From contig NZ_CP053538.1 in assembly GCF_013137895.1 (NCBI RefSeq), positions 2,635,001 to 2,699,000 of the forward strand: 64,000 bases of DNA, in the 5' to 3' direction. Positions within the stretch are counted from its first letter, which is position 1. The number at the start of each line of letters is the position of its first letter. The position numbers and the translations under genes were made by a program. The DNA is from Hymenobacter taeanensis. Its GTDB lineage: Bacteria > Bacteroidota > Bacteroidia > Cytophagales > Hymenobacteraceae. The notes under the pieces are model-generated. The model saw only the letters and a program-made list of their open reading frames with translations, did no database searches and was not told the origin of the DNA. Shown in pieces: positions 1 through 63,028 of the stretch.

Positions 1-661
1 CGACACGGAGCCCTGGAAGCTCATCAAATCGGATGAGGCGCGCACCGGCACCGTCCTGCACGTGGCTCTGCAGCTCGCCGCTAGCCTCGTGACGCTCATG
101 GAGCCCTTCTTGCCCTATTCGGCTGAGAAGCTAGGCCACATGCTGAACCTCGAGAAAGGCACCTGGCAGGCCGCTGGTCGCCCCGACGCCCTATCGGCTG
201 GCCATCAGTTGGGAGAAGCCGCGTTGCTCTTCACCAAAATCGAAGACAGCACCGTGGAAGCTCAGGTGCAAAAGCTCCTCGATACGAAGAAAGCCAACGA
301 GTTGGCCGCCGCCGTAGCTGCCCCCGCCAAGGATGACGTCAGCTTCGAGCAGTTCCAGACCATGGACCTGCGCATCGGCACCATTGTGGCCGCCGAGAAG
401 GTGGCTAAGACCAAAAAGCTTCTCAAGCTGAGCGTAGACCTGGGCTTCGATGAGCCCCGCACCATCGTGTCGGGCATAGCTGAGCACTTCCTGCCCGAGG
501 CCCTTATAGGCCAGCAGGTGCAGGTGCTGCTTAACCTCGCACCCCGCGAAATCAAAGGCATCCAAAGCCAGGGCATGCTCCTGATGGCCGAAAACGCTGA
601 TGGGGTGCTCAGCCTCATGCAGCCCAGCAGCCCCGTGCGCCCGGGTTCCGGAGTGGCCTAG
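1..661 (+). CDS. metG: Methionyl-tRNA synthetase, C-terminal part (5' truncated by window edge)
   Basis: Methionyl-tRNA synthetase charges tRNA-Met with methionine in the cytoplasm. The reading frame is open from base 2, where it encodes TEPWKLIKSDEARTG, so the gene begins before the window. What is visible is the end of the anticodon-binding helical domain (residues including LMEPFLPYSAEKLGHML), then an alanine-rich linker, then a C-terminal EMAP/Trbp111-type tRNA-binding OB fold (FQTMDLRIGTIVAAEKV, GIQSQGMLLMAEN). That appended domain is usual in long bacterial MetG. The protein ends Gly-Val-Ala with stop TAG inside the recurrent heptamer GGCCTAG. A strong hairpin terminator follows. Assignment is firm; only the catalytic core is unseen. 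Confidence 0.96.
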   Translation, partial: DTEPWKLIKSDEARTGTVLHVALQLAASLVTLMEPFLPYSAEKLGHMLNLEKGTWQAAGRPDALSAGHQLGEAALLFTKIEDSTVEAQVQKLLDTKKANELAAAVAAPAKDDVSFEQFQTMDLRIGTIVAAEKVAKTKKLLKLSVDLGFDEPRTIVSGIAEHFLPEALIGQQVQVLLNLAPREIKGIQSQGMLLMAENADGVLSLMQPSSPVRPGSGVA

Positions 662-832
662 ACCTCACCCCCCCCGGCCCCCTCTCCTCTGGGACAGGGG
701 AAGTCAAACAAATCTATAAAGCAAACGAGCCGCTGAAAACTTCAGCGGCTCGTTTGCTATTTACGCATAAATGAATCAGGAAGATATTAGGCTCCCCCTC
801 TCCCTGAGGAGAGGGGGCCGGGGGGTGAGGTC
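661..832. repeat. Long inverted repeat bracketing the metG-pth gap
   Basis: The left arm (661-688, beginning GACCTCACCCC) and right arm (807-832, ending GGGTGAGGTC) are near-perfect reverse complements, differing mainly in the length of a C/G run. They bracket the metG/pth terminator hairpin. The arms lie exactly between the two convergent genes. They look like a REP/BIME-style extragenic inverted repeat rather than a terminator, since the arms are about 120 bp apart. Confidence 0.6.
720..758. terminator. Bidirectional terminator between metG and pth
   Basis: A perfect 18-bp stem (720-737 with 741-758) closes a 3-nt loop. It is centred between convergent metG and pth. A/T-rich flanks on both sides fit use in both directions. 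Confidence 0.85.
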
Positions 833-833
833 C

Positions 834-1400
834 TTACTTCACATTCACCACGTTCATGGCGCGTTCTAGGCCTACCGTACCGAACAGCAGCACCGCTTCC
901 GCAGCCTTTTCCAGACGGCCATCCAGATCAATCTTCTCATCTGCTGAAAAGGGGCTGAGTACGTAGTCAACCTGCCGCCCTTTGCTAAAGCTGGAGTCAA
1001 TGCCGAAGCGTAGGCGGGCGTATTCGTCGGACCCAATCGTTTCCTGAATGTGCTTCAGGCCATTTTGCCCACCCGCCGAACCTTTACCTTTCAGGCGCAG
1101 CTTACCAAAGGGGAGGGCCAGGTCGTCCGTCACCACCAGCATCTGCTCTTTGGTGAGCTTGAGGGTGCTGAGCCAATGAGCGGCGGCCTTGCCACTCAGG
1201 TTCATGTAGGTAGTAGGCTTCACCAGTACAAATGTGTGGCCCTTATGCTTGATTTCAGTGGTGAAGGCATGGCGACCCAGCGTCCAGGGTGCCGCCTCGT
1301 GCTTCCTGGCCAGGTAGTCGCCCACCATAAAGCCTACGTTATGCCGCGTATCAGCGTACTCCGGCCCAATGTTGCCCAGGCACAGAACTAGAAACTTCAT
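834..1400 (-). CDS. pth: Peptidyl-tRNA hydrolase
   Basis: Pth cleaves the ester bond of peptidyl-tRNAs that drop off the ribosome, recycling tRNA. The 188-residue length is normal for the family. The N-terminal LCLGNIGPEYADTRHNVGFM carries the conserved Asn and catalytic His (His20 in the E. coli enzyme). VVTDDLALPFGKLRLK and GGQNGLKHI are the other two family blocks. The ATG at 1400 gives the standard start MKFLVLCLGN. It lies downstream of rplY on the same strand, as is common in bacteria (both proteins serve the ribosome/tRNA cycle), but a terminator hairpin lies between them, so it may have its own promoter. Confidence 0.96.
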   Translation of the reverse strand: MKFLVLCLGNIGPEYADTRHNVGFMVGDYLARKHEAAPWTLGRHAFTTEIKHKGHTFVLVKPTTYMNLSGKAAAHWLSTLKLTKEQMLVVTDDLALPFGKLRLKGKGSAGGQNGLKHIQETIGSDEYARLRFGIDSSFSKGRQVDYVLSPFSADEKIDLDGRLEKAAEAVLLFGTVGLERAMNVVNVK

Positions 1401-1401
1401 A

Positions 1402-1616
1402 AAATCACGGATTTAGACGGATTAAACGGATAACACGGATTCAGTTGTCAACTTACATCTCTGTTTCCAGCAGGGTGCTAGGAGTGGCCTAGGCCAGTAG
1501 AGCAAGTTGTAGACAATAAAAAAGCCGCTCTGCAAGCAGAACGGCTTTTTCGGTAGACGGAAGAACTCGGGCACGACATCCGTGTAATCCGATAAATCCG
1601 TCTGAATCCGTGATTT
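1402..1616. repeat. Inverted repeat of the 'cacggatt' type around the pth-rplY gap
   Basis: Left arm 1402-1437 (AATCACGGATTTAGACGGAT and onward) and right arm 1580-1616 are imperfect reverse complements built of repeated CGGATT units. The right arm runs into the rplY stop codon. The arms fall at both edges of the gap and enclose the rplY terminator. No protein or RNA gene is visible in the gap. Confidence 0.6.
1518..1550 (-). terminator. rplY terminator
   Basis: Hairpin with arms AAAAAAGCCGCTCTGC and GCAGAACGGCTTTTT around a 2-nt loop. On the minus strand the stem is followed by a T-run, as expected for intrinsic termination after rplY. Confidence 0.8.
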
Positions 1617-2187
1617 ATTTGTCGGCCTGCATCTGGCCTTTCAGAGCACGTGGGATGGTTACGGTGGCGATAGGAGCCAACGAGTTGGTGAGGATGGTGT
1701 AACCTTTAGGCTCAACCTTGTTCACCTTCACTGATTTACCTAGCTCCAGGTCCGAGATGTTTACTTCTACGGAATCGGGCAGGTTCTCAGGAGTAGCCTT
1801 CACTTTCAGCTTACGCAGCTTGCTAACCAGCTTGCCACCAGCCAGAACGCCGGGCGAAACGCCAACGAACTTAACGGGAACGTCCATTTTCACTTCTTTG
1901 CCATCCTGCAGCTCCAGGAAGTCAACGTGCAACAGCATTTCGTTTACGGGGTGGAACTGAGCGTCCTGCACGATAGCGCGACGGATGTCGCCTTCGATGT
2001 TCAGTTCAACGATGTGAACTTCAGGAGTGTACAACAGTTCGCGGAAGAGGATAGCTGGCGAGGAGAAGTGAATCTGCTCAGTGCCGCCGTACAGTACGCA
2101 AGGAACGTACGAATCCAGGCGCAGCGCCTTGGCGTCCTTCTTACCGAGATTCGCTCTTTTAAACCCTACAATCTCGAGGCTTTTCAT
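1615..2187 (-). CDS. rplY: 50S ribosomal protein L25/general stress protein Ctc
   Basis: L25 (TL5/CTC form) binds 5S rRNA in the large ribosomal subunit. The protein is 190 residues: an N-terminal L25 domain (MKSLEIVGFKRANLGKKDAK, VPCVLYGG) and a C-terminal beta domain typical of the long CTC form (HVDFLELQDGKEVKMDVPVKFVG, LPDSVEVNISDLELGKSV). The ATG at 2187 was chosen because it gives the family start MKSLEIVGFKR. The longer open frame to 2298 would run into the upstream hairpin and promoter. It sits between prs and pth; prs-rplY-pth is a widespread bacterial order. Confidence 0.95.
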   Translation of the reverse strand: MKSLEIVGFKRANLGKKDAKALRLDSYVPCVLYGGTEQIHFSSPAILFRELLYTPEVHIVELNIEGDIRRAIVQDAQFHPVNEMLLHVDFLELQDGKEVKMDVPVKFVGVSPGVLAGGKLVSKLRKLKVKATPENLPDSVEVNISDLELGKSVKVNKVEPKGYTILTNSLAPIATVTIPRALKGQMQADK

Positions 2188-2240
2188 AAAAGTGTGCTTT
2201 TGAGGAAAATAACGCCTACCCAAAGCAGGTAAACGGGCCG

Positions 2241-2248
2241 CAAAGATA
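2241..2248 (-). promoter_or_regulatory. Predicted rplY promoter (-7 element)
   Basis: On the minus strand the octamer TATCTTTG fits the Bacteroidota -7 consensus TAnnTTTG. A T-rich TTTT tract lies about 19 bp upstream in place of TTTG. The implied leader to the rplY ATG is about 45-50 nt. Confidence 0.6.
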
Positions 2249-2284
2249 GGTGGATTGTTCCGGAAAGAAAAGGCTATATATAAA

Positions 2285-2330
2285 AGAACCTCATACAAAG
2301 CACCGTCGGCTGTGCTCTGTATGAGGTTCT
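2285..2330 (-). terminator. prs terminator
   Basis: A 19-bp stem (2285-2303 with 2312-2330) with a single G-U type mismatch and an 8-nt loop sits just after the prs stop codon and before the rplY promoter. Confidence 0.8.
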
Positions 2331-2357
2331 AATCTTACCGCGTAACTACCTAGAGGC

Positions 2358-3287
2358 CTAGATAAACAGCGAGCTGATAGACTCGTGGGTTACTACATTG
2401 CGGATGGCCTGCGCAAAGAGACCAGCCACCGAGATAACCTTAATCTTATGGTTTTCCTCTTTCAGGGGGAGAGTGTCGGTAATAACCAACTCTTCTAGGG
2501 CTGAATTACGGATCCGCTCGTGGGCGGGCCCGCTCAGCACGCCGTGGGTGATAACCGCCCGTACAGACTTTGCGCCACGCTCCATCAGCAGCTCCGCGGC
2601 TTTACAGATAGTGCCGGCCGTATCCACGATGTCATCCACCAGCACCACGTTCATACCGGCTACGTCACCAATCACCTGCATAGAGGCAATCTCGTTGGCC
2701 CGCAGGCGCATTTTGTCGCAGACCACAATCTCAGCTCCAAACTTCTTGGCGAAGGCGCGGGTGCGTACTACACCGCCCACGTCGGGAGAGGCGAAGATGA
2801 GGTTGTCGAGGTTCAATGACTTGATGTAAGGCGCCGTCACGGTGGCGCCATCCAGATGGTCTACCGGAATATCAAAGAAACCCTGGATCTGACCCGCGTG
2901 CAGGTCGCAGGTCATGAGGCGGTCGGTGCCAACGCTCTGCACAATGTTCGCTACCACTTTGGCCCCAATGCTCACGCGCGGTTTGTCTTTGCGGTCTTGG
3001 CGGGCATAGCCCATGTAGGGCATCACAATGTTCACCTTGTAGGCTGAGGCGCGCTTGGCAGCATCTACCATCAGCATCAGCTCCATCAGGTTTTCGGCCG
3101 GGGGGTTGGTGCTCTGAATCAGGAATACCGCGCAGCCGCGCACGCTCTCGTTGAAACTGGGGCCAAGCTCCGTATCGGCGAAGCGCTGGATGCTCAGGTC
3201 GCCGAGGGGCGTACCATAGGCGGCGGCAATCTGTTCACCCAGTTCGCGGGATGCATTGCCCGCGAATATTTTTACCTGCTGTGACAT
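2358..3287 (-). CDS. prs: Ribose-phosphate pyrophosphokinase (PRPP synthetase)
   Basis: This enzyme makes PRPP from ribose 5-phosphate and ATP, feeding nucleotide, His, Trp and NAD synthesis. The 309-residue length is normal. Landmarks are the N-terminal VKIFAGNASRELGEQIAAAYG, the ATP-site flexible region YMGYARQDRKDKPRVSIGAK, and the PRPP loop VVLVDDIVDTAGTICKAAELL. The ATG at 3287 gives MSQQVKIFAG. The open frame continues far upstream, but that part crosses the tRNA-Gln gene and is not coding. The stop TAG lies in a GGCCTAG motif. It is followed by its own terminator. Confidence 0.96.
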   Translation of the reverse strand: MSQQVKIFAGNASRELGEQIAAAYGTPLGDLSIQRFADTELGPSFNESVRGCAVFLIQSTNPPAENLMELMLMVDAAKRASAYKVNIVMPYMGYARQDRKDKPRVSIGAKVVANIVQSVGTDRLMTCDLHAGQIQGFFDIPVDHLDGATVTAPYIKSLNLDNLIFASPDVGGVVRTRAFAKKFGAEIVVCDKMRLRANEIASMQVIGDVAGMNVVLVDDIVDTAGTICKAAELLMERGAKSVRAVITHGVLSGPAHERIRNSALEELVITDTLPLKEENHKIKVISVAGLFAQAIRNVVTHESISSLFI

Positions 3288-3403
3288 GGGGGTAGGGGGT
3301 AGAGGAGGAAAGGCTGCCACTCCGAGTGCAGCAAAGCACCTAAACGGCTCAAAGTTAACCGTTCGGCTTGCTTGCGGCGCTGGGAGCGGGTGAAACTGAA
3401 AAA

Positions 3404-3449
3404 GCGAAAGGCGCCGACTCTTCCGGGAGGAAGAATCAGCGCCTTTCGC
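3404..3449 (-). terminator. Terminator after tRNA-Gln
   Basis: Arms GCGAAAGGCGC (3404-3414) and GCGCCTTTCGC (3439-3449) pair perfectly, and the interior also pairs (GACTCTTCC with GGAAGAATC). On the minus strand a run of T follows. It lies between the tRNA and prs. Confidence 0.8.
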
Positions 3450-3462
3450 GTTGGGTAGTCGG

Positions 3463-3535
3463 TTGTCCGACCAGGGCTCGAACCTGGACTTTCTTGAATC
3501 AAAATCAAGCGTGTTGCCAGTTACACCATCGGACA
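3463..3535 (-). tRNA. tRNA-Gln(UUG)
   Basis: Read on the minus strand, acceptor arms TGTCCGA and TCGGACA pair (3529-3535 with 3464-3470). The anticodon stem CTTGA/TCAAG encloses loop TTTTGAT with anticodon TTG, which reads glutamine CAA codons. The T arm CCAGG-TTCGAGC-CCTGG is perfect. The 3' CCA is not fully encoded. A strong promoter lies upstream and a terminator downstream. Confidence 0.95.
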
Positions 3536-3577
3536 ATTTCCCTTACGGTAACCAAGTGGTTGTGCCGTTTCGGTGTG

Positions 3578-3608
3578 CAAATGTACCACGGCTTTTATTC
3601 AAGGCAAA
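3578..3608 (-). promoter_or_regulatory. Promoter of tRNA-Gln
   Basis: On the minus strand TTTG (3605-3608) is followed after exactly 19 bp by TACATTTG (3578-3585), a full match to the Bacteroidota sigma-A consensus. It lies about 43 bp before the mature tRNA 5' end. Confidence 0.8.
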
Positions 3609-3721
3609 TATTCTTGCAAAAATTTTTTGCGAGAGTTTAGCCCGAAAGGGCCGTGGAAGGGCTTTGGGCGCTGATTTTCAGCGTCTCAGAGCCTGAAAAA
3701 AAAGTTGAACGCTGTGGCTAG

Positions 3722-5308
<1,587 letters not shown>

Positions 5309-5310
5309 TT

Positions 5311-5383
5311 TGGTTGTTGACTGCTGGAAGTTGATTGCGCGTCACTCAGCTTCCAGCAGTCAGCTGTCAACCATCAACAACCA
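5311..5383 (+). repeat. Inverted repeat in the atpD-atpC gap
   Basis: Left arm 5311-5335 (TGGTTGTTGACTGCTGGAAG and onward) and right arm 5350-5383 (CTTCCAGCAGTC then CATCAACAACCA) are reverse complements apart from an 11-nt bulge in the right arm. They fill the whole gap and end 5 nt before the atpC ATG. In the mRNA this would form a large hairpin next to the start codon and could set the atpD:atpC ratio; that role is inference. Confidence 0.65.
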
Positions 5384-5388
5384 AGCAT

Positions 5389-5634
5389 ATGCATCTGGAA
5401 ATTATCACGCCGGACCGGAAAGTATTTGAAGGCGAAGTTTTGTCGGCTCAGTTTCCGGGTACCGATGGACTGTTTGAAGTTCTGAACAACCACGCACCGC
5501 TTATCTCGGCCCTAAAGGCTGGTGAAGTAGTAGTGAATGGTGGCGCCGGCCGCGAGTCGTTCCGTATTGAGGGCGGCGTGGTTGAGGTGCTTCGCAACAA
5601 CGTTATCGTGCTGGCTGAAGGCGCTTCGGTGTAA
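5389..5634 (+). CDS. atpC: ATP synthase F1 subunit epsilon (short form)
   Basis: Epsilon couples the rotor to F1 and can inhibit ATP hydrolysis. The protein is only 81 residues: the N-terminal beta-sandwich is complete (MHLEIITPDRKVFEGEV, FPGTDGLFEVLNNHAPLISAL, FRIEGGVVEVLRNNVIVLAE). The C-terminal two-helix inhibitory domain of about 50 residues seen in E. coli is absent. This short form is common in Bacteroidota. The ATG at 5389 follows the inverted repeat; the upstream open frame runs through the repeat and is not coding. Confidence 0.94.
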   Translation: MHLEIITPDRKVFEGEVLSAQFPGTDGLFEVLNNHAPLISALKAGEVVVNGGAGRESFRIEGGVVEVLRNNVIVLAEGASV

Positions 5635-5654
5635 TTTAAGCCCAGACACATGGT

Positions 5655-5687
5655 AAAAAGCCTTTCCTTTGCGGGGAAGGCTTTTTT
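5655..5687 (+). terminator. atpDC terminator
   Basis: Stem AAAAAGCCTTTCC with GGGGAAGGCTTTTTT followed by T-rich sequence, 20 nt after the atpC stop. Confidence 0.8.
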
Positions 5688-5766
5688 GCTTTTTAGCCCT
5701 AGGCTAGTGTAGCACCCACTACTCTGTCTTCCCTCGCTTTATCCCAGCTCCCACCCCTCACGCCGC

Positions 5767-6891
5767 ATGGAAATCCACCCCAAAATTACCCCTATCTATC
5801 AGACCTCTGTTTTCAAGTTTGATGATCTTAATGAGCTGGAACAATACTTTGGAGAGCCCGGGAGCCGGTACATGTATTCGCGCAACGGCAACCCCAACTC
5901 CGATGAGTTGGCGGCGGCTGTAAACCGGTTAGAGGGTGGTGCAGGAGCTATTGCTACGGGGTCGGGTATGGCCGCCATTTTTGCGGCGCTGCTGGCGTTC
6001 TGCCAGGCCGGCGACCATGTGCTCTGCGCGGCCGATATCTACGGGGGCTCCTCGAGCCTGCTGAATGCGGAACTGAGCCGCATGGGTATCACGGTAACGT
6101 ACGTGCCATTTGAAAAGCTCTACGACGTAGGCCAGTACGTGCAGCCTACCACGCGCGTGATGCTGGCGGAGACGCTGAGTAACCCGCTACTGCGCGTAGC
6201 TGATTTGCGCCGCCTGGCTACTGAGTGCCACGAGCATAAGCTGAAGCTGGTGGTAGATAACACCTTTGCCTCACCCATCTTAACGCAGCCGATAGGCCTA
6301 GGGGCAGACATTACGCTGCACAGCGTAACCAAGTACATTTCGGGCCACTCTGATGTGACGGCTGGCGTAGTGGTGGCGGCTGATGCGGAAGTGGCAGCCC
6401 GCCTCAAACAGATTGGTGTGGTGTACGGCCTCACGCTGAGCCCTATGGAGAGCTGGCTGGCGGTGCGCGGACTCAAGACTCTGCGCCTGCGCATGCGGGA
6501 GCACAGCCACAATGCCCTAGCCATTGCGCAATTTCTGCAGCAGCACCCAGCTGTGCGGGCCGTGTATTACCCTGGCCTAGCCGACCATCTGCAGCACGCG
6601 CTGGCTCAGGAGCAGGGCGGCGGTCTGTTTGGTGGCATGATGTCCATAAAGCTGGCCGACGATCCGGAGGTGGTAAACCGGTTTATGCAGCGGTGTCAGC
6701 GGTGGCCCTTCGCGCCTTCGCTGGCCGGAGTAGACTCCTCCTTGTCATACCCGCTCGGGACCTCGCACCGATACCTTACTCCAGAGCAGCAGGAAGAGCT
6801 GGGTATCAGCGTTGGCGTGATTCGCCTGTCTATCGGCATTGAGCCAGTAGAAGAATTGATAGCGGATCTAAAGCAGGCGCTGGAAAGCTAG
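5767..6891 (+). CDS. Cys/Met metabolism PLP-dependent enzyme (cystathionine gamma-synthase/lyase family)
   Basis: This is a trans-sulfuration fold-type I PLP enzyme, which handles cystathionine, O-acyl-homoserine or methionine as substrate. The 374-residue length fits. Visible motifs are YSRNGNPNSDELAAAVNRLEGG, ATGSGMAAIFAAL, the PLP-stacking block DIYGGSSSLLNAEL, VDNTFASPILTQP, and the Schiff-base lysine in LHSVTKYISGHSDVTAG. The C-terminal SLSYPLGTSHRYLTPEQ and VIRLSIGIEPVEELIADL are typical. It stands alone between the atpDC terminator and a convergent aminotransferase gene, with no SAM riboswitch seen in the short leader. The exact reaction cannot be fixed from sequence alone. Confidence 0.9.
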   Translation: MEIHPKITPIYQTSVFKFDDLNELEQYFGEPGSRYMYSRNGNPNSDELAAAVNRLEGGAGAIATGSGMAAIFAALLAFCQAGDHVLCAADIYGGSSSLLNAELSRMGITVTYVPFEKLYDVGQYVQPTTRVMLAETLSNPLLRVADLRRLATECHEHKLKLVVDNTFASPILTQPIGLGADITLHSVTKYISGHSDVTAGVVVAADAEVAARLKQIGVVYGLTLSPMESWLAVRGLKTLRLRMREHSHNALAIAQFLQQHPAVRAVYYPGLADHLQHALAQEQGGGLFGGMMSIKLADDPEVVNRFMQRCQRWPFAPSLAGVDSSLSYPLGTSHRYLTPEQQEELGISVGVIRLSIGIEPVEELIADLKQALES

Positions 6892-7000
6892 CTTTTTTTT
6901 GTGCTAGCTCTCCATCCGTTGTACCAAGCGCGTTTCCTTTTGTGCTGCTAGTACTGCTCAAGGAACTTTATGTACTGCTGGCAGGAGTTTTATACTGAAT

Positions 7001-8158
7001 TCAGGTGGTAGCAGTAGGCTTTACAGCCGCTTTAATGGCCTCAGCTATGCGCTGCAGATCCGCTTCTGTCATGGCAGTGCCAGATGGCAAGCACAAGCCT
7101 TGGGCGAATAGCTCTTCGCACGCACTGCCACCATACATAGGAGCCGTTGCGAAAAGTGGCTGCAGGTGCAGAGGCTTCCACAGCGGCCGGCTCTCAATAT
7201 TGTGAGACTCTAAGTGCAGCCGTAGCTGCTCTGGAGTGGTAGCAGTTTGCGCCGGGTCAAGGAGTAGGGTAGTAAGCCAACGGTTCGAGCGGCCCCCGGC
7301 GGGCTCCGTCTGACTAAGCGTTAAACCGGGTACGGACTGCAAGTTAATTTTATACCACAGGTACGTTTCGCGGCGTTTTTTTACCCGGTCTTCCAGCAGC
7401 TCCATTTGCCCCCGACCAATGCCCGCCAGCAGATTGCTGAGACGGTAGTTGTAGCCTACGTCGGAGTGCTGGTAATACGGTGCCGGGTCTTTGGCTTGTG
7501 TGGCCCAATACCTAGTTTTTTGTGCCCACTCCTGGCTGTTGGTAACCAAGGCACCGCCCCCACTCGTGGTGAGTATTTTGTTGCCGTTGAAAGAGAAGAC
7601 CCCCACCGCGCCAAAGGTGCCTAAAGGGCGGCCGTCGTAGCGGGCGCCGAGAGCCTCGGCGGCGTCTTCCAGAATCGGAATATCGAATTCAGTGGCTATT
7701 TCCAGTACCTCGCGCACTTTGGCGGGCATACCGTAGAGGTGCACCAGAAGCAGAGCTTTAGGCTTGCGGCCCTTCCGGATACGGTCTTCAATAGCCTCGC
7801 GAAGCCGCTGAGGACATATATTCCAGGTATCGGCCTCGCTGTCAACAAAAACAGGAGTGCCGCCTAAATACAGGATGGGGTTAGCCGTGGCTACGAACGT
7901 GAAGGAAGGGCAGAGCACTTCATCTCCGGGGCCCACGCCCAGCAGCCGCAAGCCCAAGTGGATAGCCGCTGTACCTGAGGTAAGCGCCACACAGTGACCA
8001 GCGCCGGTAAAGTCGCAGATGTCTCGCTCGAAGCCATCGAGATTTGGGCCGGCGGGGGCTACCCAGTTGTCCTCAATGGCTTTGTGCAGGTAGTTTAACT
8101 CGTGGCGGCCGAGGTGGGGTGGGGAAAGAAAAATCCGGTCGTAATCCTGACTGCGCAT
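7001..8158 (-). CDS. DegT/DnrJ/EryC1/StrS-family sugar aminotransferase
   Basis: A PLP-dependent aminotransferase acting on nucleotide-linked keto-sugars; by context probably a PglE/WecE-like UDP-4-keto-sugar aminotransferase. The 385 residues begin with the family signature FLSPPHLGRHELNYLHKAIE and contain VALTSGTAAIHLGLRLLGVG, DEVLCPSFTFVATANPILY, ILEDAAEALGARYDGRPLG and the PLP lysine in FSFNGNKILTTSGGGAL. It is the last gene of a minus-strand cassette after a PglD-like acetyltransferase and a PglC-like phosphosugar transferase. Together they fit the making of an acetamido-4-amino-sugar and its loading onto undecaprenyl phosphate. The 4,6-dehydratase expected for that pathway is not in the window. 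Confidence 0.9.
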   Translation of the reverse strand: MRSQDYDRIFLSPPHLGRHELNYLHKAIEDNWVAPAGPNLDGFERDICDFTGAGHCVALTSGTAAIHLGLRLLGVGPGDEVLCPSFTFVATANPILYLGGTPVFVDSEADTWNICPQRLREAIEDRIRKGRKPKALLLVHLYGMPAKVREVLEIATEFDIPILEDAAEALGARYDGRPLGTFGAVGVFSFNGNKILTTSGGGALVTNSQEWAQKTRYWATQAKDPAPYYQHSDVGYNYRLSNLLAGIGRGQMELLEDRVKKRRETYLWYKINLQSVPGLTLSQTEPAGGRSNRWLTTLLLDPAQTATTPEQLRLHLESHNIESRPLWKPLHLQPLFATAPMYGGSACEELFAQGLCLPSGTAMTEADLQRIAEAIKAAVKPTATT

Positions 8159-8298: not shown

Positions 8299-9012
8299 CT
8301 ACTTATGTTGCTTAATGGCATGCGCCGGAACTCCCACCGCTGTACAGTCAGCGGGCAAGTCACGGACGGCTACAGCACCGGCTCCAATGATGGTGCGGGC
8401 CCCAATGCGCACTTGATTGATAACCGTGGCATTGGTGCCCAAGTACACGCCGCGCTCCAGATAAGCCTCGCCGCCCACATTGGCGTGGGGCATAAGGGAG
8501 CAGAAGTCTTCCAGCACGGCGTCGTGGCCAATGGTGCAGCCGAGGTTAAGCAGTACATGGTAACCAAGCCGGATGTCGCAGGTAAGTACGCAGCCCTGAC
8601 TGATGATGCACCCTGGCCCAAACTGGAGCTGTTGGTACGGCTGGCAGGCCACCCCCGGATGGACGAGGGTAGCGAAGGTGAGCCGGGGCGAGGTGAGCCG
8701 GGCCGCTACGGCAGCTCGGCTTTGCCCATTACCTACGGCAATAACGACGTGCGCCGGCTCAATGGTAGCGTTCAAATCAGCGCTGGAGCCTAAATAAGGA
8801 AGCCCGTGAATGGTAGGAGTGGCTGGTACCCGGTCGTCATAGAATCCTTGGATGTCCCAGGTTAAGCGGGCTTCATTGATTTGACGCGCCAGCACCAGCA
8901 CTTCCCGGCCTAGGCCACCAGCGCCCACAATTACCAGGCGCGGTAAACCTGCCGTGGCTGGCAAGCCGGTTGCTTCTGAAGTGGTATGGGAAGGGAGCTG
9001 GGCGTGGCTCAT
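8299..9012 (-). CDS. PglD-like sugar O/N-acyltransferase (left-handed beta-helix)
   Basis: 237 residues. After a 24-residue N-terminal extension comes a PglD-type N-domain (RLVIVGAGGLGREVLVLARQ, GFYDD) and then hexapeptide repeats of a left-handed beta-helix (CIISQGCVLTCDIRLGYHV, NLGCTIGHDAVLEDFCSLMP, VYLGTNATVINQVRIGARTI). Such enzymes use acetyl-CoA to acetylate the 4-amino group of UDP-amino-sugars; the His in IGHD is the usual catalytic base. The start ATG overlaps the stop of the upstream PglC-like gene by 4 nt (ATGA), so the two are translationally coupled. The next gene, the aminotransferase, would supply its substrate. The exact sugar is inference. Confidence 0.88.
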   Translation of the reverse strand: MSHAQLPSHTTSEATGLPATAGLPRLVIVGAGGLGREVLVLARQINEARLTWDIQGFYDDRVPATPTIHGLPYLGSSADLNATIEPAHVVIAVGNGQSRAAVAARLTSPRLTFATLVHPGVACQPYQQLQFGPGCIISQGCVLTCDIRLGYHVLLNLGCTIGHDAVLEDFCSLMPHANVGGEAYLERGVYLGTNATVINQVRIGARTIIGAGAVAVRDLPADCTAVGVPAHAIKQHK

Positions 9013-11555: not shown

Positions 11556-11676
11556 GTGATTAAGTGACTACGTGATGAAGTAAGTGTAGCACTCTGTCGG
11601 CGCGAACAGCGCCACACATGCACAGCCTAGGCCACTAGCTCATCAAACTCATTTCATCACGTAGTCAGTCAAACAC
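11556..11676. repeat. Inverted repeat 'gtgattaagtgactacgtgatgaa'-type
   Basis: Left arm 11556-11580 and right arm 11653-11676 share a perfect 15-bp complementary core (TGACTACGTGATGAA). They flank a 70-bp spacer that includes a CTAGGCC motif. A related half appears near 31440. The element fills the gap between the EamA gene and the LptF/G-type gene. Confidence 0.6.
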
Positions 11677-16194: not shown

Positions 16195-16198
16195 TAGT

Positions 16199-16228
16199 AA
16201 AGCCCTGGCCTAGGCCAGGGCTTTTTTT
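16199..16228 (+). terminator. Terminator of the GT2-sigma operon
   Basis: A perfect palindromic 12-bp stem, AAAGCCCTGGCC with GGCCAGGGCTTT, around TA and followed by a T-run. The centre is GGCCTAGGCC, the palindromic form of the recurrent motif of this chromosome. Confidence 0.88.
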
Positions 16229-20056: not shown

Positions 20057-21496
20057 CTAGGCCACGCTTACTTTCACCATGTTGGTTTTGCCCTTTTCGT
20101 TGATCGGCATAGAAGCAGTGTTGATAAACACGTCGCCCTTCTGCAGGTGTCCGGAGGCCGTTAGGGCGTACTTGATATCCGATACGGTGCCATCGGTGCT
20201 GATCATGCGGTCATAATAGAAACCACGCACACCCCAAATCAGACTTAGGGTAGTCAGAAGGGAACGGTTATCAGTGAAGATAAAGATGTTCGCCTTGGGC
20301 CGATACTTGGCAATTTGGAAGGCGGTGTAGCCGCGGTGCGTCATGCCGGTAATGGCTTTGGCGCCGGTATTCTTGGCTAAGTGGCAAGCCGCCGACAGCA
20401 CGCTATCCACCATGAAGGTTTGCGAGGTGGGGTCGATGGGGAACCAGTGGTTATAAAGGCTCGGCATGCGCGTTTCCACGCTCATGATAGTGGCCACCAT
20501 TGAGCGGATAACTTCGGCGGGGTAGGCACCCACGGCCGTTTCGGCCGACAGCATTACGGCATCGGCTCCGTCAATCACGGCGTTGGCTACGTCGCTGGTT
20601 TCGGCGCGAGTAGGGCGGGGGGCCGTAATCATGCTTTCCATCATCTGGGTAGCCACAATAACCGGTTTACCGGCCTTGTTGCACTTTTCTACAATCAGCT
20701 TCTGGGCCATCGGCACCTCTTCCATCTTCACCTCCACACCCAGGTCGCCGCGGGCTACCATTACGGCATCGGTGAGGGCAATGATTTCATCGAGGTTTTT
20801 AAGGCCTTCGGGGGTTTCAATCTTGGCAATTACTTTGGCAGTCTTGCCACTCTCGGCAATCAGGCTCTTAATGAAGCGGATGTCTTCGGCGCGGCGAGCA
20901 AACGAGAGGGCAATCCAGTCTACATCGTTCTCTAAGCCAAACTTCAGGTCCTCAATATCCTTCTCCGTCATTGACGGCGCCGACACTTCTGAATCGGGCA
21001 AATTGATGCCCTTGCGGGGCTTCACAGTACCGCCGTAGATAACTTCAACGTCAACCTCCTTGTCGCGGTCAGTGGCCAGCACGCGTAGCTCAATTTTGCC
21101 GTCGTCGATCAGGATCATGTCGCCGGCCTTCACGTCGCGGGCCAGGCCTAGGTAGATAGTGCTTAGGCGGGTGGCAGTAGTAATTTCTTTCTCGCCGCAA
21201 ACCAGCTTAATCCGGTCGCCGGCCTTAATTTCTACGGCCCCGCCTTCTACTTCACCCAGCCTGATTTTTGGGCCCTGCAGGTCCTGGAGCAGGCCTACGT
21301 GGGTGCGCATATCTTTATTCAGGCGGCGCACTGTGTTGATCACCGAGAGATGGTCTTCGTGGCTGCCGTGGGAGAAATTCAGGCGAAAGACATCCACTCC
21401 CTCGCGGATGAGCATACCCAGCTTTTCGTACGTATTGGAAGCGGGGCCAACAGTGGCCACAATTTTTGTTCTATTGAAATGCGGACGAGGTTCCAT
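20057..21496 (-). CDS. pyk: Pyruvate kinase
   Basis: Last step of glycolysis: PEP + ADP to pyruvate + ATP. The 479 residues contain NRTKIVATVGPASNTYEKL, LNFSHGSHEDH, LQDLQGPKIRLGEV, the catalytic Lys/Glu segment AKVIAKIETPEGLKNLDEII, VMVARGDLGVEV, and the ATQMMESMITAPRPTRAETSDVANAV block, then a C-terminal allosteric domain. Length is typical of the standard form. It lies downstream of the IPExxxVDY gene on the same strand, a pairing seen across Bacteroidota. The stop TAG is in CTAGGCC. Confidence 0.97.
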   Translation of the reverse strand: MEPRPHFNRTKIVATVGPASNTYEKLGMLIREGVDVFRLNFSHGSHEDHLSVINTVRRLNKDMRTHVGLLQDLQGPKIRLGEVEGGAVEIKAGDRIKLVCGEKEITTATRLSTIYLGLARDVKAGDMILIDDGKIELRVLATDRDKEVDVEVIYGGTVKPRKGINLPDSEVSAPSMTEKDIEDLKFGLENDVDWIALSFARRAEDIRFIKSLIAESGKTAKVIAKIETPEGLKNLDEIIALTDAVMVARGDLGVEVKMEEVPMAQKLIVEKCNKAGKPVIVATQMMESMITAPRPTRAETSDVANAVIDGADAVMLSAETAVGAYPAEVIRSMVATIMSVETRMPSLYNHWFPIDPTSQTFMVDSVLSAACHLAKNTGAKAITGMTHRGYTAFQIAKYRPKANIFIFTDNRSLLTTLSLIWGVRGFYYDRMISTDGTVSDIKYALTASGHLQKGDVFINTASMPINEKGKTNMVKVSVA

Positions 21497-34399: not shown

Positions 34400-35308
34400 A
34401 TGGTGAAACTATACGCAGTTAGTTACCTGCTCTGTTTAGGAGCAGGAGTACATGAGGCACAGGCGCAAGCAAGCACGCTGGGCACGGGAGGTGCCCGCGC
34501 CGCTGGCCTAGGCCAGGTAAGCACCGTGCTGGAAAACGACGTGTGGGCGGCTACCAACAACTCGGCCGCACTAGGTGTCCTAACCCGCCCAATGGTAGGC
34601 TTCGGAGCCGCCAATAAATTTTTGCTGCCTTCCCTGAATACCGCTTCAGTAGTGGCGGCTGTGCCGCTAGGCCACCGAGCCACCGCCGCCGGAAGCGCTG
34701 CTGGCGTGCCGGCTGTGGTAGCTGCCGCAGACGCTCCGCGCTTTGGCGTGGTAGGCGTCATGGCCCAACGGTTCGGAGGGAAGCTGTACGCTGAGCAGGC
34801 CTTGGGAGTGGCCTACGGCTACCAGTTGGGTACCGTGCGCGTAGGAGCCCGCGTGGAGGTGTTGCAAACCAGCCTCGAAGGCTTGGGCAGCCGCCGAACG
34901 GTGGCGGCTTCCCTGGCCGGACAGGCCGATATTATCCCACGTAAGCTCACGTTTGGGGCCACGCTCTACAACCTGAACCAGGCTCGGCTGGCGCCTTACC
35001 AGGATGAGCGCGTGCCCACAGTACTGCGGGCCGGTCTGGGGTGGCGCACTTCTGAGAAAGTGCTGGTGCTGGTAGAGACGGAGAAGGATGTGGAGCAAGA
35101 TGCCAATTTCAAAGCGGGCTTGGAGTACCGCCCGGTTCCGGTGCTGGCGCTCCGGGGTGGCCTAGCAACACGTACCCATCAAACCACCGGCGGAGTTGGG
35201 TTTAAGAGCGGAGTGTTTCAGGTGGATTATGCCGCCGCGTGGCAGCAAGCTTTGGGCCTGAGCCAGCAAGTAAGCATAGCGCTGCAATGGGAGCAGAAGC
35301 AGCCATGA
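34400..35308 (+). CDS. Outer-membrane beta-barrel-like protein (PorV/PorQ-like)
   Basis: 302 residues. Signal peptide (KLYAVSYLLCLGAGVHEAQA) then STLGTGGARAAGLGQVSTVLENDVWAATNNSAALG, which resembles the N-terminal hatch of FadL/PorV/PorQ-type barrels. The rest is a series of amphipathic strands (VGARVEVLQTSL, KLTFGATLYNLNQARL, EYRPVPVLALRGGLATR, GVFQVDYAAAWQQALG, QQVSIALQWEQK). An ATG at 34400 is preferred to the TTG three bases before it. Its stop overlaps the ATG of the next gene by 4 nt (ATGA), so the two products are probably made together at the outer membrane. A T9SS role is only a similarity-based guess. Confidence 0.75.
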   Translation: MVKLYAVSYLLCLGAGVHEAQAQASTLGTGGARAAGLGQVSTVLENDVWAATNNSAALGVLTRPMVGFGAANKFLLPSLNTASVVAAVPLGHRATAAGSAAGVPAVVAAADAPRFGVVGVMAQRFGGKLYAEQALGVAYGYQLGTVRVGARVEVLQTSLEGLGSRRTVAASLAGQADIIPRKLTFGATLYNLNQARLAPYQDERVPTVLRAGLGWRTSEKVLVLVETEKDVEQDANFKAGLEYRPVPVLALRGGLATRTHQTTGGVGFKSGVFQVDYAAAWQQALGLSQQVSIALQWEQKQP

Positions 35309-48041: not shown

Positions 48042-49223
48042 CTAGGCCACTACCGGCTTTTCGCGCACGGCTACTAACAGGTAGGCCAGGGCCAGCAGCA
48101 CGCAGCTGGCACTCAGGGCATGCACGTAAGGCAGGCGCTCTGAGAGATTGGTGTAAATCCAACCGGCTAGCAGGGCCCCCAGACCTATGCCAGCTTCCAG
48201 GGCAATGTACATGGTTGCCACGGCCCGGCCCCGCCGCTCAGGGTGGCTCAGGTCAATCGTCCAGGCGTAGAGGGTGGGGGAGTTGAGGCCAGTAGCAAGC
48301 CCAAACAGCACGGCCGCGGTCAGGAACAGCAAGGGCGTAGTAGCAAACGACAACAGGCCCAGCGCCACCACCAGCAGCCCCGAGGACCAGCGCAGTACCG
48401 GCACGCGGCCATACGTGTCAGAAGTACGACCCGCTATGAGGCGCACTACCAGCGAGGCCACCGTGAAGCAGGTGAAAAACAACCCCTTGTTTTCAATGCC
48501 CAGCAGCCGGCTTTGGTCGGGAATAACGGTGAGCACGGCCCCATACGGGAAGAGACACAGCAGCGTAACAAGGGCCGGGGCCAGCACGCGGGGCTCCAGC
48601 ACTTCGCTCCAATCCAGCTTCAGCAAGCTCCAGCTGAATTTCTCGCGCTGGGCCTGGGGCAAGGTTTCCGTCATGGTGCCCTGCACAACTAAGCTCAGTA
48701 GGGCCATACCCGAAGAAGCATAAAACATGGTATTGAGCGAGAAGTGCTGAGCCAGCAGGCCCCCAATGGCGGGGCCGGCCGCCATACCCAAAGAACCCGC
48801 CACACCTAGCAGGCCCATGGCCTCACCACGGCGCTCATACGGGATAATATCAGCAATAAAAGCAGCGGTGCCGGTAGGTTTGAAGCCCGTACTGAAGCCG
48901 TGCAGCAGGCGCAGCAGCAGGAACCCGGTAACGGTAGTGGCCCAGGGATAAAAAAAACCGCAGATAAAACACACCAGGGAGCCAAATACCATCACCGGAA
49001 TGCGGCCCACGGTGTCGGCGAGCTTGCCGCTGAAGGGGCGCGAAAGACCGGCTGTGAGGGTAAAGAGGGCAATAATAAACCCTTTGTAGTCGGCGCCGCC
49101 CAGGCGGGTGAGGTGGTCGGGTAGTTCTGGCAGGAGCATGTTGAAGCTCATGAAGAACAAAAACGACGACAAGCACATCAGCCAGAAGCCGATGGTATAC
49201 GTAGAAGAACGAAAAGAGGGCAT
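48042..49223 (-). CDS. MFS transporter
   Basis: 393 residues with 12 hydrophobic segments in two six-helix halves. Family signatures are the loop 2-3 motif GLSRPFSGKLADTVGRIPVMVFG (GxLaDrxGRrpvl), GAAFIADIIPYERRGEAMGL and PERRGRAVATMYIALEAGIGLGALL in the second half, with RLIAGRTSDTYGRVPVLRWS as the second copy of the loop motif. It is of the drug/metabolite exporter type; substrate unknown. Stop TAG lies in CTAGGCCAC. A -7 element sits about 24 bp upstream of the ATG. Confidence 0.9.
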   Translation of the reverse strand: MPSFRSSTYTIGFWLMCLSSFLFFMSFNMLLPELPDHLTRLGGADYKGFIIALFTLTAGLSRPFSGKLADTVGRIPVMVFGSLVCFICGFFYPWATTVTGFLLLRLLHGFSTGFKPTGTAAFIADIIPYERRGEAMGLLGVAGSLGMAAGPAIGGLLAQHFSLNTMFYASSGMALLSLVVQGTMTETLPQAQREKFSWSLLKLDWSEVLEPRVLAPALVTLLCLFPYGAVLTVIPDQSRLLGIENKGLFFTCFTVASLVVRLIAGRTSDTYGRVPVLRWSSGLLVVALGLLSFATTPLLFLTAAVLFGLATGLNSPTLYAWTIDLSHPERRGRAVATMYIALEAGIGLGALLAGWIYTNLSERLPYVHALSASCVLLALAYLLVAVREKPVVA

Positions 49224-52780: not shown

Positions 52781-53064
52781 GAGGTAGTTGAAATATAAAA
52801 AGCGGTAACTGCCGCGCATCAGCTGCTAAAGAGCCGCAGCGGGTACGCCGTAATGTACTGCGTTGGGTAAGCGTTGATTGGAAACTTACCTGAGCCAGCG
52901 GGCTTTGGTTGCTGGTTCATAACGCAGCAGTTTTCAGCTGCATTATACAACACGGTGACGGGAGTAAGCCAGCGTGATGCCGAGGGCCCCTGATAGGAAC
53001 GGAACGCCCTCAATCGGCAAGGCTATAGCTAGGCTGCGCAAAAGGCCCCCCTAGGCCACTAAAA

Positions 53065-55009: not shown

Positions 55010-55016
55010 TGTACAG

Positions 55017-55061
55017 CACATAAAACAGGCCTAGGATAAGATACTAGGCCTGTTTTATGTG
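55017..55061 (+). terminator. Terminator of the ABC transporter gene
   Basis: Perfect 18-bp stem, CACATAAAACAGGCCTAG with CTAGGCCTGTTTTATGTG. Each arm ends in the recurrent motif (GGCCTAG and CTAGGCC). Confidence 0.85.
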
Positions 55062-57558: not shown

Positions 57559-57570
57559 CACTTCATAAGT

Positions 57571-61387: not shown

Positions 61388-61484
61388 GACGAAGAAAATG
61401 ACACGAGGCTTTCGCTACGTGGTGGTTTTAAAAACTGACCTAGGCCAGTTGGTGAGCAATTGCGGCGGCTTTACAAACTCCTCA

Positions 61485-61530
61485 GAACGTCATGCTTCGG
61501 CAAGCCGACGCCCGATGAAGTATGACGTTC
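61485..61530. repeat. REP-like hairpin between xdhA and xdhB
   Basis: 14-bp arms GAACGTCATGCTTC (61485-61498) and GAAGTATGACGTTC (61517-61530) pair with one wobble around an 18-nt loop. The arm sequence CGTCATGCT is shared with the repeat at 29008-29101. It lies in the 156-bp gap inside the operon, so both genes' relative expression could be affected. Confidence 0.6.
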
Positions 61531-61543
61531 CTTCTTTGCGTCT

Positions 61544-63028
61544 CTACAGTAAATCCGTCAAGCTCAACTGCTCCGGAAAGAACTGCAGGAAGTGAGCTGC
61601 CAGCAACTGCCGTAATAGCAACCGCTTGTACTGCACGGTGCCGCGTACGTCACTGATCGGGCTGATTTCCTCCTGAGCCAGCTCCAGCGCACCACGTACG
61701 GTTTCAATGCTGATTTCACGCCCAATTAAGAACTCGGCCGTACGAGGCAGCACCAGCGGAATTGGGCCTACGCCACCCGCTGAGAGGCGCGCCGCTTCTA
61801 CTAGGCCACCCTGCACCCGTAGCCACGCCGCCGAGTTCACGCTGGCAATATCCAGGTGCGTGCGCTTCGAAACCTTCTCAAAATTGAAAAAGTCAGCGGC
61901 TTGGGGCGCCTGAAACTGAATGTGTAGCACCTGCTCGTCGGCGCTTTTGGCTAGCTGCTTGTAGCCCACATACAACTCCTGCAATGGCAGCTCTCGCCGC
62001 TGACCTAGGCCAGTATCTTCCAGCGTGATGCTGGCTCCAAGAGCTAGGAAGAGAATGGTTAGGTCGCCGATGGGGGAGGCGTTGATGAAGTTGCCCGCCA
62101 CCGTACCCATGTTGCGAATGGGCGTGCTGGAAACCAGCTTCAGGTGCTCGGGCAGGCGCGGCAGCAACTCCCGCATTACCCCCGACTCCATAAGCTCTTG
62201 GGCCGTAGTGGCAGCCCCCAGTACAATGTTGTTGCCCTCCCGACGAATACCGCGGCGCTCGGGCTGGCCGTACACCAACTGCACTGGCATTTCCCGCAGC
62301 TGCTCGGGGCGCTGTACCAGCAGATCAGTGCCGCCGCCCAGCACCTGGGCGCGGGCTGCTGTGGCTGCATCTAGGCCAGTTACGGTAGCAGTGTGACCAT
62401 TCTGAGACTGGTTAATGCCTGCTGCCACCGTCTCTGTAGCATTTCGCAACGCGGTGAGCTTAGCCGGAATATCCTGGAAATAGCCTGGCACAAAGCCCTG
62501 CTCTGCCAGCCAGGCCAGGGGCTGCTCGGTAGGCCTATCAGTAAGCTGCTGCTGCAGAGCCAGCGTGGCCCGCTCCAGCGACTTGTAGCCCGTGCAGCGA
62601 CAGATGTTACCATCAATGGCCGCTAGCGCCGTTTCTGGGGTGCCGGGCTTTTGGCTGAGTGAGTGCCCCGTTAACGACATCACGAAGCCCACCGTGCAAA
62701 ACCCGCACTGCGAGCCACCTTCCGCTACAATAGCCTGCTGAATGGGCGTGAGCGTGCCCCGTGCTGCGTTAATACCCTCTACCGTTACTACATGACGGCC
62801 GTGGGCGTTGCCCAGCGGCGTTAGGCACGAAGTCATCGACTGGTAGGCCACTGTTTGTCCGCCTGGCTGCAACTCACCCACCAGCACGGTGCAGGCCCCG
62901 CAGTCGCCCTCCCGGCATCCAATTTTTGTGCCCGTCAGGTGGCGGTTATAGCGCACAAAATCAAGCAGGGTACTGCCCGCCGGTTGGGTGGTCCGGATGA
63001 GCTGATCGTTAAGATAAAACTGAAGCAT
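61544..63028 (-). CDS. xdhA: Xanthine dehydrogenase, FeS and FAD subunit
   Basis: 494 residues. The electron-transfer subunit with two [2Fe-2S] clusters and FAD. First cluster: GCREGDCGACTVLVGEL. Second cluster: GSQCGFCTVGFVMSL with DGNICRCTGYKSL. FAD domain: VLGGGTDLLVQRP, FISSTPIRNMGTVAGNFINA-like segment SSTPIRNMGTVAGNFINASP, and SPIGDLTILFLALGASI. The ATG at 63028 gives MLQFYLNDQLIRTT; a TTG two codons earlier is possible. It is the first gene of the xdhA-xdhB-membrane protein-xdhC operon. No purine regulator lies beside it in the window. Confidence 0.95.
   Translation of the reverse strand: MLQFYLNDQLIRTTQPAGSTLLDFVRYNRHLTGTKIGCREGDCGACTVLVGELQPGGQTVAYQSMTSCLTPLGNAHGRHVVTVEGINAARGTLTPIQQAIVAEGGSQCGFCTVGFVMSLTGHSLSQKPGTPETALAAIDGNICRCTGYKSLERATLALQQQLTDRPTEQPLAWLAEQGFVPGYFQDIPAKLTALRNATETVAAGINQSQNGHTATVTGLDAATAARAQVLGGGTDLLVQRPEQLREMPVQLVYGQPERRGIRREGNNIVLGAATTAQELMESGVMRELLPRLPEHLKLVSSTPIRNMGTVAGNFINASPIGDLTILFLALGASITLEDTGLGQRRELPLQELYVGYKQLAKSADEQVLHIQFQAPQAADFFNFEKVSKRTHLDIASVNSAAWLRVQGGLVEAARLSAGGVGPIPLVLPRTAEFLIGREISIETVRGALELAQEEISPISDVRGTVQYKRLLLRQLLAAHFLQFFPEQLSLTDLL

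What the first reader, a model, noticed from the sequence alone, without database searches (positions are those of the whole stretch)
655..62377. Highly iterated motif CTAGGCC/GGCCTAG across the window
By hand count the heptamer occurs about 55 times on either strand in 64 kb. About 8 are expected at random, and CTAG is usually rare in bacteria. Most extend to the octamer CTAGGCCA/TGGCCTAG (about 40 seen versus 2 expected). Examples: 655-661, 1486-1495, 8907-8916, 11627-11633, 16207-16216, 20057-20063, 28274-28280, 34505-34514, 48042-48048, 55028-55050, 61440-61446, 62371-62377. The 10-mer palindrome GGCCTAGGCC occurs at least four times. It lies in genes on both strands, in gaps, and inside terminators. 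This recalls HIP1 in cyanobacteria, but I know of no named equivalent in this group. A role in methylation, nucleoid protein binding, repair or mutation bias is open.
Basis: partly seen in the sequence, partly recalled or inferred. Interest (0 to 1): 0.72.

Follow-up and report, generated by a model that had tools for sequence, protein, structure and literature searches.

The report
Genome-wide eight-letter word in Hymenobacter
A small group of Hymenobacter bacteria keeps thousands of copies of one eight-letter DNA word scattered through its genome, gaining and holding them more than chance would, while some related bacteria do the same with other words; no known system tested here explains it.

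Summary
Confirmed, and stronger than claimed. The window lies in a 4.88-Mb Hymenobacter genome. GGCCTAG/CTAGGCC occurs 56 times here (expected 11-15), TGGCCTAG 42 times (expected 2-4), and 2,587 times genome-wide. The unit is WGGCCTAS. Synonymous-codon shuffling leaves a 4- to 12-fold excess. Synonymous bases inside the word are 70-89% identical between relatives against 48-53% expected; flanks are near expectation; TGGCCTA ranks first of 6,642 heptamers. Losses run at 0.3 and gains at about 2 times neutral, which fits weak whole-word selection or drive (2Nes about 2). Only 4 of 120 Hymenobacter genomes carry this word; some relatives carry others (ACCTAGG type; AAGTATAA in Pontibacter) that also top conservation scans. 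It behaves like cyanobacterial HIP1 and like uptake-sequence dialects but fails tested features of both: no C5 or beta-class methylase is shared by the four genomes, and no type IV pilus/type II secretion ATPase was found. My reading: a sequence-specific DNA-binding chromosome-maintenance factor with drifting specificity. The pressure is shown; the factor is inferred.

The parts
131..62850 (.). 96 WGGCCTAS sites in the window (either strand): 74 in predicted genes, 18 intergenic, 4 across a gene edge
   Evidence: One search lists all 96. Retained in H. wooponensis at 67 of 89 aligned sites, H. fodinae 68 of 90, G159 59 of 83
654..661 (+). TGGCCTAG; its TAG is the stop codon of ORF 62-661 (+)
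   Evidence: retained in H. fodinae and G159, not in H. wooponensis
1485..1496 (.). TGGCCTAGGCCA, two overlapping sites holding the 10-mer palindrome 1486-1495
8907..8917 (.). 10-mer palindrome 8907-8916 with one WGGCCTAS site, 8910-8917 (-)
16196..16227 (.). terminator-like hairpin with T run whose stem is two overlapping sites (16206-16213 +, 16210-16217 -)
   Evidence: (sequence)
20057..20064 (-). TGGCCTAG (CTAGGCCA on +) at the 3' end of the pyruvate kinase ORF 20057-21496 (-); its TAG is the stop codon
   Evidence: present in all three relatives
34504..34515 (.). TGGCCTAGGCCA, two overlapping sites holding the palindrome 34505-34514
48042..48049 (-). site whose TAG is the stop codon of ORF 48042-49223 (-)
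55027..55051 (.). two separated sites in inverted orientation forming a hairpin in a gap
   Evidence: left site kept in H. fodinae only, right site kept in H. wooponensis and H. fodinae, G159 not aligned
62371..62378 (-). TGGCCTAG on the - strand, retained in all three relatives

Best explanation
Each affected lineage carries thousands of copies of one short double-stranded DNA word (here WGGCCTAS) that is read as a whole by a sequence-specific DNA-binding factor. Having a copy is very slightly favoured, about 2Nes = 2 per site, either by weak selection for a chromosome-wide function such as nucleoid organisation or recombination and repair, or by a repair/conversion process that favours the bound word. 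Copies are therefore gained about twice as fast and lost about 0.3 times as fast as neutral sequence, wherever coding allows, and this gives the observed abundance. The factor's specificity drifts between lineages, which produces 'dialects' (ACCTAGG type in deep Hymenobacter and Solirubrum, AAGTATAA in many Pontibacter). SHOWN: whole-word maintenance, gain and loss rates, strand symmetry, other words in relatives, no tested methylase family shared by the four carriers, no pilus ATPase. INFERRED: that one protein reads the word, that the other words belong to the same system, and that its job is chromosome maintenance.
For: Excess survives synonymous shuffling. Synonymous bases inside the word conserved 70-89% against 48-53% in ten ordered comparisons, flanks 61-66% against 61-64%. 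TGGCCTA first of 6,642 heptamers, and of 21 one-mismatch heptamers only AGGCCTA is also conserved. TGGCCTAS loss 0.29 (91/309.3), gain 2.19 (44/20.1); 40 scrambled heptamers median loss 0.96, gain 0.97. No coding-strand preference of the octamer, 254:270. Different words top the same blind scan in G138/G185 and in Pontibacter. Tested methylase families and pilus ATPase do not account for it.
Against: No binding protein was identified and no function tested. Selection and biased conversion give the same numbers. Conditional on presence in three genomes, retention in the fourth (G000 48/63, H. wooponensis 48/59, H. fodinae 48/55, G159 48/68) is only a little above anagram controls (74%, 77%, 75%, 60%). 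Isolated copies are not better kept than crowded ones, so no spacing-dependent function shows. The nearest relatives outside the four genomes lack the word, so the function is dispensable or served otherwise.
Confidence: 0.45

Rival explanations
1. Methylation-linked repair, as proposed for HIP1: an orphan or IIG/IIL methylase of a class not searched (gamma-class N6, type I, Dam-like) marks the word, and mismatch repair guided by the mark creates and keeps copies.
For: Abundance and behaviour like HIP1 (PMC4390886, sections seen). The base before the last is A, as the methylated A is in the sites of most MmeI-family enzymes (PMC4833311 passages), and the window genome does hold such an enzyme.
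Against: PF00145 absent in 2 and PF01555 in 3 of the 4 carriers. The MmeI-type enzymes of G000 and G159 are 97-98% alike in the N-terminal parts but 51% in the recognition domain, though both genomes share the word. Homologues occur in species whose nadE locus is word-poor, such as H. rigui and H. psychrophilus.
Confidence: 0.2
2. DNA uptake sequence: the word is preferred during uptake of kin DNA by a receptor not based on type IV pili, and accumulates by transformation.
For: Dialects between relatives, about one copy per kb, denser between genes, maintenance at orthologous places. ComEC intact in 14 of 14 genomes.
Against: No pilus/type II secretion ATPase over the cut-off in 20 of 20 Hymenobacter and Solirubrum genomes searched. 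Weak hairpin association, 37 of 391. ComEC is equally present in word-poor genomes. No depletion in accessory genes of three genomes.
Confidence: 0.12
3. Chi-like recombination hotspot read by an AddAB/RecBCD-type enzyme.
For: Short frequent word that differs between lineages; asymmetric here.
Against: No leading-strand bias, about 199:183 by hand sum over 20 samples. One dialect, CCTAGG, is a palindrome. Nothing about the recombination enzymes was tested.
Confidence: 0.08
4. Pure mutational pattern: codon or context bias, or a word that simply mutates less.
For: A cold word would be both conserved and somewhat enriched.
Against: Codon bias is removed by shuffling. All word positions are constrained, not one mutable base. 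Gains exceed neutral about 2-fold, whereas a cold spot predicts 1.
Confidence: 0.05

Closest known systems
HIP1 and alternate HIPs of cyanobacteria (Elhai 2015, PMC4390886; abstract and sections 2.3, 2.6 and part of 3.4 seen)
   Same: Genome-wide iterated octamer at 500-2,500 per Mb scale (here about 530 TGGCCTAG per Mb in G000), in genes and gaps, replaced by other words in some relatives.
   Different: HIPs are palindromes and are associated with cognate methylases; WGGCCTAS is asymmetric and the tested methylase families are not shared. Bacteroidota instead of cyanobacteria.
DNA uptake sequence dialects of Neisseriaceae (PMC3630211, passages seen) and USS of Pasteurellaceae (PMC12616744, abstract seen)
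   Same: Asymmetric word, about one per kb, dialects between related species.
   Different: Known or predicted receptors are type IV minor pilins; these genomes lack the pilus ATPase. Inverted pairs in terminators are not common here.
Chi sites (recalled, no paper read)
   Same: Frequent short word differing between lineages.
   Different: No leading-strand bias; one dialect is palindromic.
Type IIL (MmeI-family) recognition sites (PMC4833311, passages seen)
   Same: Asymmetric; A is the penultimate base; such an enzyme is encoded in the window genome.
   Different: Recognition domain not shared by G000 and G159; restriction sites are usually avoided rather than enriched (recalled).

Membership tests
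HIP (highly iterated palindrome) | Highly over-represented octamer, 500-2,500 per Mb | tested here: met
   2,587 TGGCCTAG in 4.88 Mb; 4,401 WSTGGCCTAS in about 5.1 Mb of G159
HIP (highly iterated palindrome) | Palindromic word | tested here: not met
   WGGCCTAS is asymmetric; T before GGCC is commoner and better kept than A
HIP (highly iterated palindrome) | Cognate methylase present where the word is enriched | tested here: inconclusive
   PF00145 and PF01555 not shared by the four carriers; other methylase classes only sought by a motif scan in 35% of G000, one IIL hit
DNA uptake sequence | Type IV pilus-type uptake machinery (minor pilin receptor, PilB/PilT ATPase) | tested here: not met
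   PF00437: none over the cut-off in 19 Hymenobacter genomes and Solirubrum, one match below it (G114); control rings in 14 of 14
DNA uptake sequence | Common inverted pairs in terminators | tested here: not met
   37 of 391 intergenic sites in hairpins against 4.6-8.0% of same-GC words; above control in the aligned G000 stretch (12 of 53 against 8.0%) and at 1 of 103 in the other G000 samples
DNA uptake sequence | Dialects between related species | tested here: met
   that the words belong to one system is inferred
DNA uptake sequence | Raises transformation by DNA that carries it | not testable with these tools
   bench experiment
Chi site | Leading-strand bias | tested here: not met
   about 199:183 by hand sum (400 kb, replichores guessed from a noisy GC skew)
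Chi site | Attenuates AddAB/RecBCD | not testable with these tools
   bench experiment
Type IIL (MmeI) recognition site | Same target-recognition domain wherever the word is enriched | tested here: not met
   G000 and G159 recognition domains 51% identical, N-terminal parts 97-98%

The most novel reading that the evidence does not exclude
A chromosome-wide recognition system in Hymenobacteraceae that I found in none of the literature searched: an unknown DNA-binding factor whose target word is held at about 1,800-7,000 sites per genome by weak pressure (2Nes about 2) and has taken at least three forms (WGGCCTAS, ACCTAGG/CCCTAGGG types, AAGTATAA), with neither a known type of cognate methylase nor a pilus-based uptake system behind it.
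Probability: 0.5. Interest if true: 0.85.

Novelty: new variant of a known kind. Interest (0 to 1): 0.72.

Why it matters
Why some bacteria carry thousands of copies of one short word is an old open question for HIP1. Here is a second phylum with at least three words, related species with and without them, and measurable gain and loss rates. That makes the search for the responsible gene tractable by gene-content comparison, pull-down and methylome sequencing.

Tried and rejected
Rejected or weakened: codon or dinucleotide bias; RNA-level role (octamers 254 sense to 270 antisense summed over five sets; the heptamer TGGCCTA alone leans to sense, 570 to 418, which its codons can explain); C5 and beta-class methylases; the MmeI-type enzyme as cause; type IV pilus uptake; Chi strand bias; absence from accessory genes (O/E 6.2, 5.0 and 3.7 in three genomes against 4.2-5.8 in core; only in G000, 12 low-GC accessory genes, 0 against 0.4 expected); site redundancy, since isolated copies are not better kept (346/573, 235/341, 80/122, 8/18 and 1/2 with rising distance); positional memory across dialects (25 of 316 A sites face CCTAGG in B genomes against 41 of 1,675 controls; rows share sites and the words overlap in sequence, so this is not independent evidence). 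AGCTAACAG in L037-L039 looked like another word but is largely a local tandem repeat. Even spacing was not found (CV 1.15-1.51). Searches for an earlier report: seen as listings only apart from the papers named; none of the listed titles or abstract starts reports such a word in Hymenobacter or Pontibacter.

Limits: genes are my own ORF predictions; pooled pairs are not independent; gene-family searches used hand-picked genomes (13, 14, 15, 44); 'accessory' was judged from 200-kb stretches only; the 40 scrambled words were those with an expectation over 5. The nadE tree is one gene. A paper on selection for HIP1 that I recall (NAR 2018) is not held and is not used.
Full report
THE OBSERVATION. 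All twelve quoted coordinates read as the finder wrote them. GGCCTAG/CTAGGCC occurs 56 times in the window, TGGCCTAG/CTAGGCCA 42 times and GGCCTAGGCC 4 times. Markov models of order 0 to 2 expect 11.2-14.8 for the heptamer and 2.4-3.5 for the octamer, both strands. The window is bases 2,635,001-2,699,000 of a single 4,879,662-base contig. Whole-genome counts are 248 for the 10-mer palindrome, with 2 for its reversed control, and 2,587 for TGGCCTAG, with 60 for the control; the other 149 genomes of the family searched have 11-540. The organism is a Hymenobacter: the nearest named relatives at the nadE locus are H. wooponensis and H. fodinae, 97% amino-acid identity.

CODON BIAS IS NOT THE CAUSE. 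Shuffling synonymous codons within each predicted gene keeps protein and codon usage. In genes of a 204-kb stretch of this genome TGGCCTA occurs 135 times against 35.1 expected and TGGCCTAG 68 against 9.0. In G159 the figures are 223 against 38.9 and 114 against 10.3. Over all five sets the excess is 3.8- to 5.7-fold for the heptamer and 7.6- to 12.5-fold for the octamer. Intergenic density is about 1.5 to 2.7 times the coding density. The octamer has no preference for the coding strand, 254 sense to 270 antisense summed over the five sets (all). It therefore most likely acts as double-stranded DNA, not as RNA or codons. Some copies supply a stop codon: the TAG of ORFs ending at 661, 20057 and 48042 is part of a site.

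WHAT THE UNIT IS. Around GGCCTA the preceding base is T in 54% and A in 32%, and the following base is C or G in 84%. A conservation footprint over synonymous positions in six ordered genome pairs stands clearly above expectation over the eight bases of WGGCCTAS and, less, at the base before (0.88 against 0.77). Most further flank positions sit near expectation; offsets -5 and -8 are somewhat above (0.74 against 0.63 and 0.62) and -13 and 17 below. Of 21 one-mismatch heptamers only AGGCCTA is conserved in excess (z 14.5); the others lie between z -3.1 and 1.9. Among 6,642 heptamers TGGCCTA is first (z 26.7; all words mean -0.08, sd 1.9). The word is thus WGGCCTAS, asymmetric. The 10-mer palindrome is two overlapping copies or near-copies.

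MAINTENANCE. Heptamer sites of this genome are identical in H. wooponensis at 71% (n 146) and H. fodinae at 74% (n 156) of aligned sites, against 31-32% for heptamers of equal GC; in the reverse direction the figures are lower, 58% from H. wooponensis and 44% from G159 into G000, against 28-32%. At codons with unchanged amino acid, third bases inside the word are 76-89% identical in nine of ten ordered comparisons and 70% in the tenth, G159 into G000, against 48-53% expected from the same codons elsewhere; the ten flank controls read 61-66% against 61-64%. In four-way alignments 48 of 219 sites are present in all four genomes, against 1,000 of 20,727 (4.8%) for anagram words; given presence in three, retention in the fourth is 71-87% against 60-77% for anagrams, a small difference. 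Intergenic copies are kept at 89 of 182 against 30% of intergenic heptamers.

GAINS AND LOSSES. Between H. wooponensis and H. fodinae, codons inside TGGCCTAS changed 91 times against 309.3 expected (0.29). Near-miss codons became the word 44 times against 20.1 expected (2.19). For the looser WGGCCTA the same pair gives 0.36 and 1.67, and ten ordered pairs give 0.43 and 2.00. Forty scrambled heptamers gave median loss 0.96 (range 0.58-1.78) and median gain 0.97 (0.30-1.52). A one-parameter model with 2Nes about 2.1 predicts loss 0.30, gain 2.4 and abundance about 8-fold, close to the measured in-gene excess. A mere mutation cold spot predicts gain 1. Weak selection and biased conversion cannot be told apart by these numbers.

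THE WINDOW GENOME SEEMS TO BE RELAXING. It has fewest copies: 2,569 WSTGGCCTAS against 3,767, 3,875 and 4,401 in the other three. It has 5 private sites against 16 in its sister H. wooponensis and 17 in H. fodinae (sister relation from one protein tree). The numbers are small.

DISTRIBUTION AND DIALECTS. Of 120 Hymenobacter genomes, 4 have 2,569-4,401 WSTGGCCTAS and the other 116 have 25-195. The four form one clade nested among species that are word-poor at the nadE locus. A blind scan of the fetched loci showed other words. ACCTAGGS occurs 1,824-4,613 times in five Hymenobacter genomes (G138, G185, G156, G196, G080), 581 times in G059 and at most 483 times in the other 114 of 120. It is also enriched in Solirubrum puertoriconensis. 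G059 prefers CCCTAGGG. On the nadE tree the carriers of this type sit on three deep branches, so it may be the older one (inference). AAGTATAA exceeds 1,000 in 24 of 50 genomes of genus g3 (1,201-7,030; the other 26 have 204-921) and in none of the other 100 genomes searched. g3 is Pontibacter by inference: the P. arcticus record G207 has the same counts as G023. Blind conservation scans put these words on top again: ACCTAG and CCTAGG first and second of 1,732 hexamers and ACCTAGG first of 2,518 heptamers between G138 and G185; AAGTAT first of 1,775 hexamers and AAGTATA first of 2,572 heptamers among three Pontibacter, there closely followed by an unrelated word (z 7.4 and 7.2). Between G138/G185 and G059 the CCTAGG signal is weaker (57% against 48%) and other words rank above it.

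WHAT IT IS NOT. The HIP model (PMC4390886, abstract and sections seen) expects a cognate methylase. PF00145 has no match in 10 of 13 genomes searched, among them G000, G159, G138 and G206. PF01555 has none in 7 of 15, among them G000, G158 and G203. A motif scan of the 35% of G000 held found one methylase-like protein, an MmeI-type IIL enzyme. A homologue with 83% identity lies on a contig of exactly the length of G159's contig 1, in a protein named from H. gelipurpurascens. The two are 97-98% identical in the N-terminal parts but 51% in the recognition domain, although both genomes share the word; the enzyme also occurs in species word-poor at the nadE locus (120 best of 7,990 listed, none named H. 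wooponensis or H. fodinae). It is thus unlikely to be the cause, though the penultimate adenine of the word fits that family's usual site (PMC4833311 passages), and other gamma-class methylases elsewhere remain possible. For uptake sequences, PF00437 (pilus and type II secretion ATPase) gave nothing over the cut-off in 19 Hymenobacter genomes and Solirubrum (one match below it, in G114), and only short matches of about 60 residues near the cut-off (three over it by at most 1 bit) in 24 g3 genomes, while the control rang in 14 of 14, over the cut-off in 13. ComEC is intact in 14 of 14, carriers or not. Hairpin association is weak (37 of 391). Chi-like strand bias is absent: about 199 leading to 183 lagging by my hand sum over the 20 samples.

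READING. The pressure acts on a whole word in double-stranded DNA, at each copy on its own as far as tested, along the whole 1.245-Mb stretch examined (60-94 WGGCCTA per 50 kb), and relatives have other words. The simplest cause is a sequence-specific DNA-binding factor with a chromosome-wide job whose specificity drifts. Nucleoid organisation or recombination and repair are the most likely jobs; this last step is inference, and I give the whole explanation 0.45.

Noticed in passing
G000 samples L001-L020 and window; 30 loci L021-L048, L054, L062: GCGATC is almost absent: 2 against 161 expected (both strands) in 464 kb of G000 and 1 copy in all in 30 Hymenobacter/Solirubrum loci of about 22 kb, against 7-11 per locus in two Pontibacter and one Adhaeribacter locus.
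   Followed up: no
L137-L140 (G138), L166-L172 (G185), L173-L176 (G059): GATC itself is nearly absent in these Hymenobacter genomes, 0.01-0.03 per kb, against about 1.9-2.0 in G080, G196 and G156.
   Followed up: no
L015:5066-8515 (-), G000 about 3.435 Mb: MmeI-type IIL restriction-modification enzyme widespread in Hymenobacter with conserved outer parts and strongly diverged target-recognition domain, as if that domain is exchanged.
   Followed up: partly
L037, L038, L039: Short repeats of AGCTAACAG/AGCTAA in gaps, often in tandem, in H. psychrophilus, H. rubripertinctus and H. sp. CCM 8763.
   Followed up: partly
L024 (H. mucosus): CTAG is raised (66 in 21.9 kb) in a near relative of the carrier clade without the word; contexts are mixed, GCTAGC commonest.
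   Followed up: partly
window 51182-52819 (-): 545-aa P-loop protein with a weak BrxC match far below the cut-off (19.2 of 400 bits).
   Followed up: no
window 37532-41128 (-): 1198-aa protein with a T9SS type A sorting domain.
   Followed up: no
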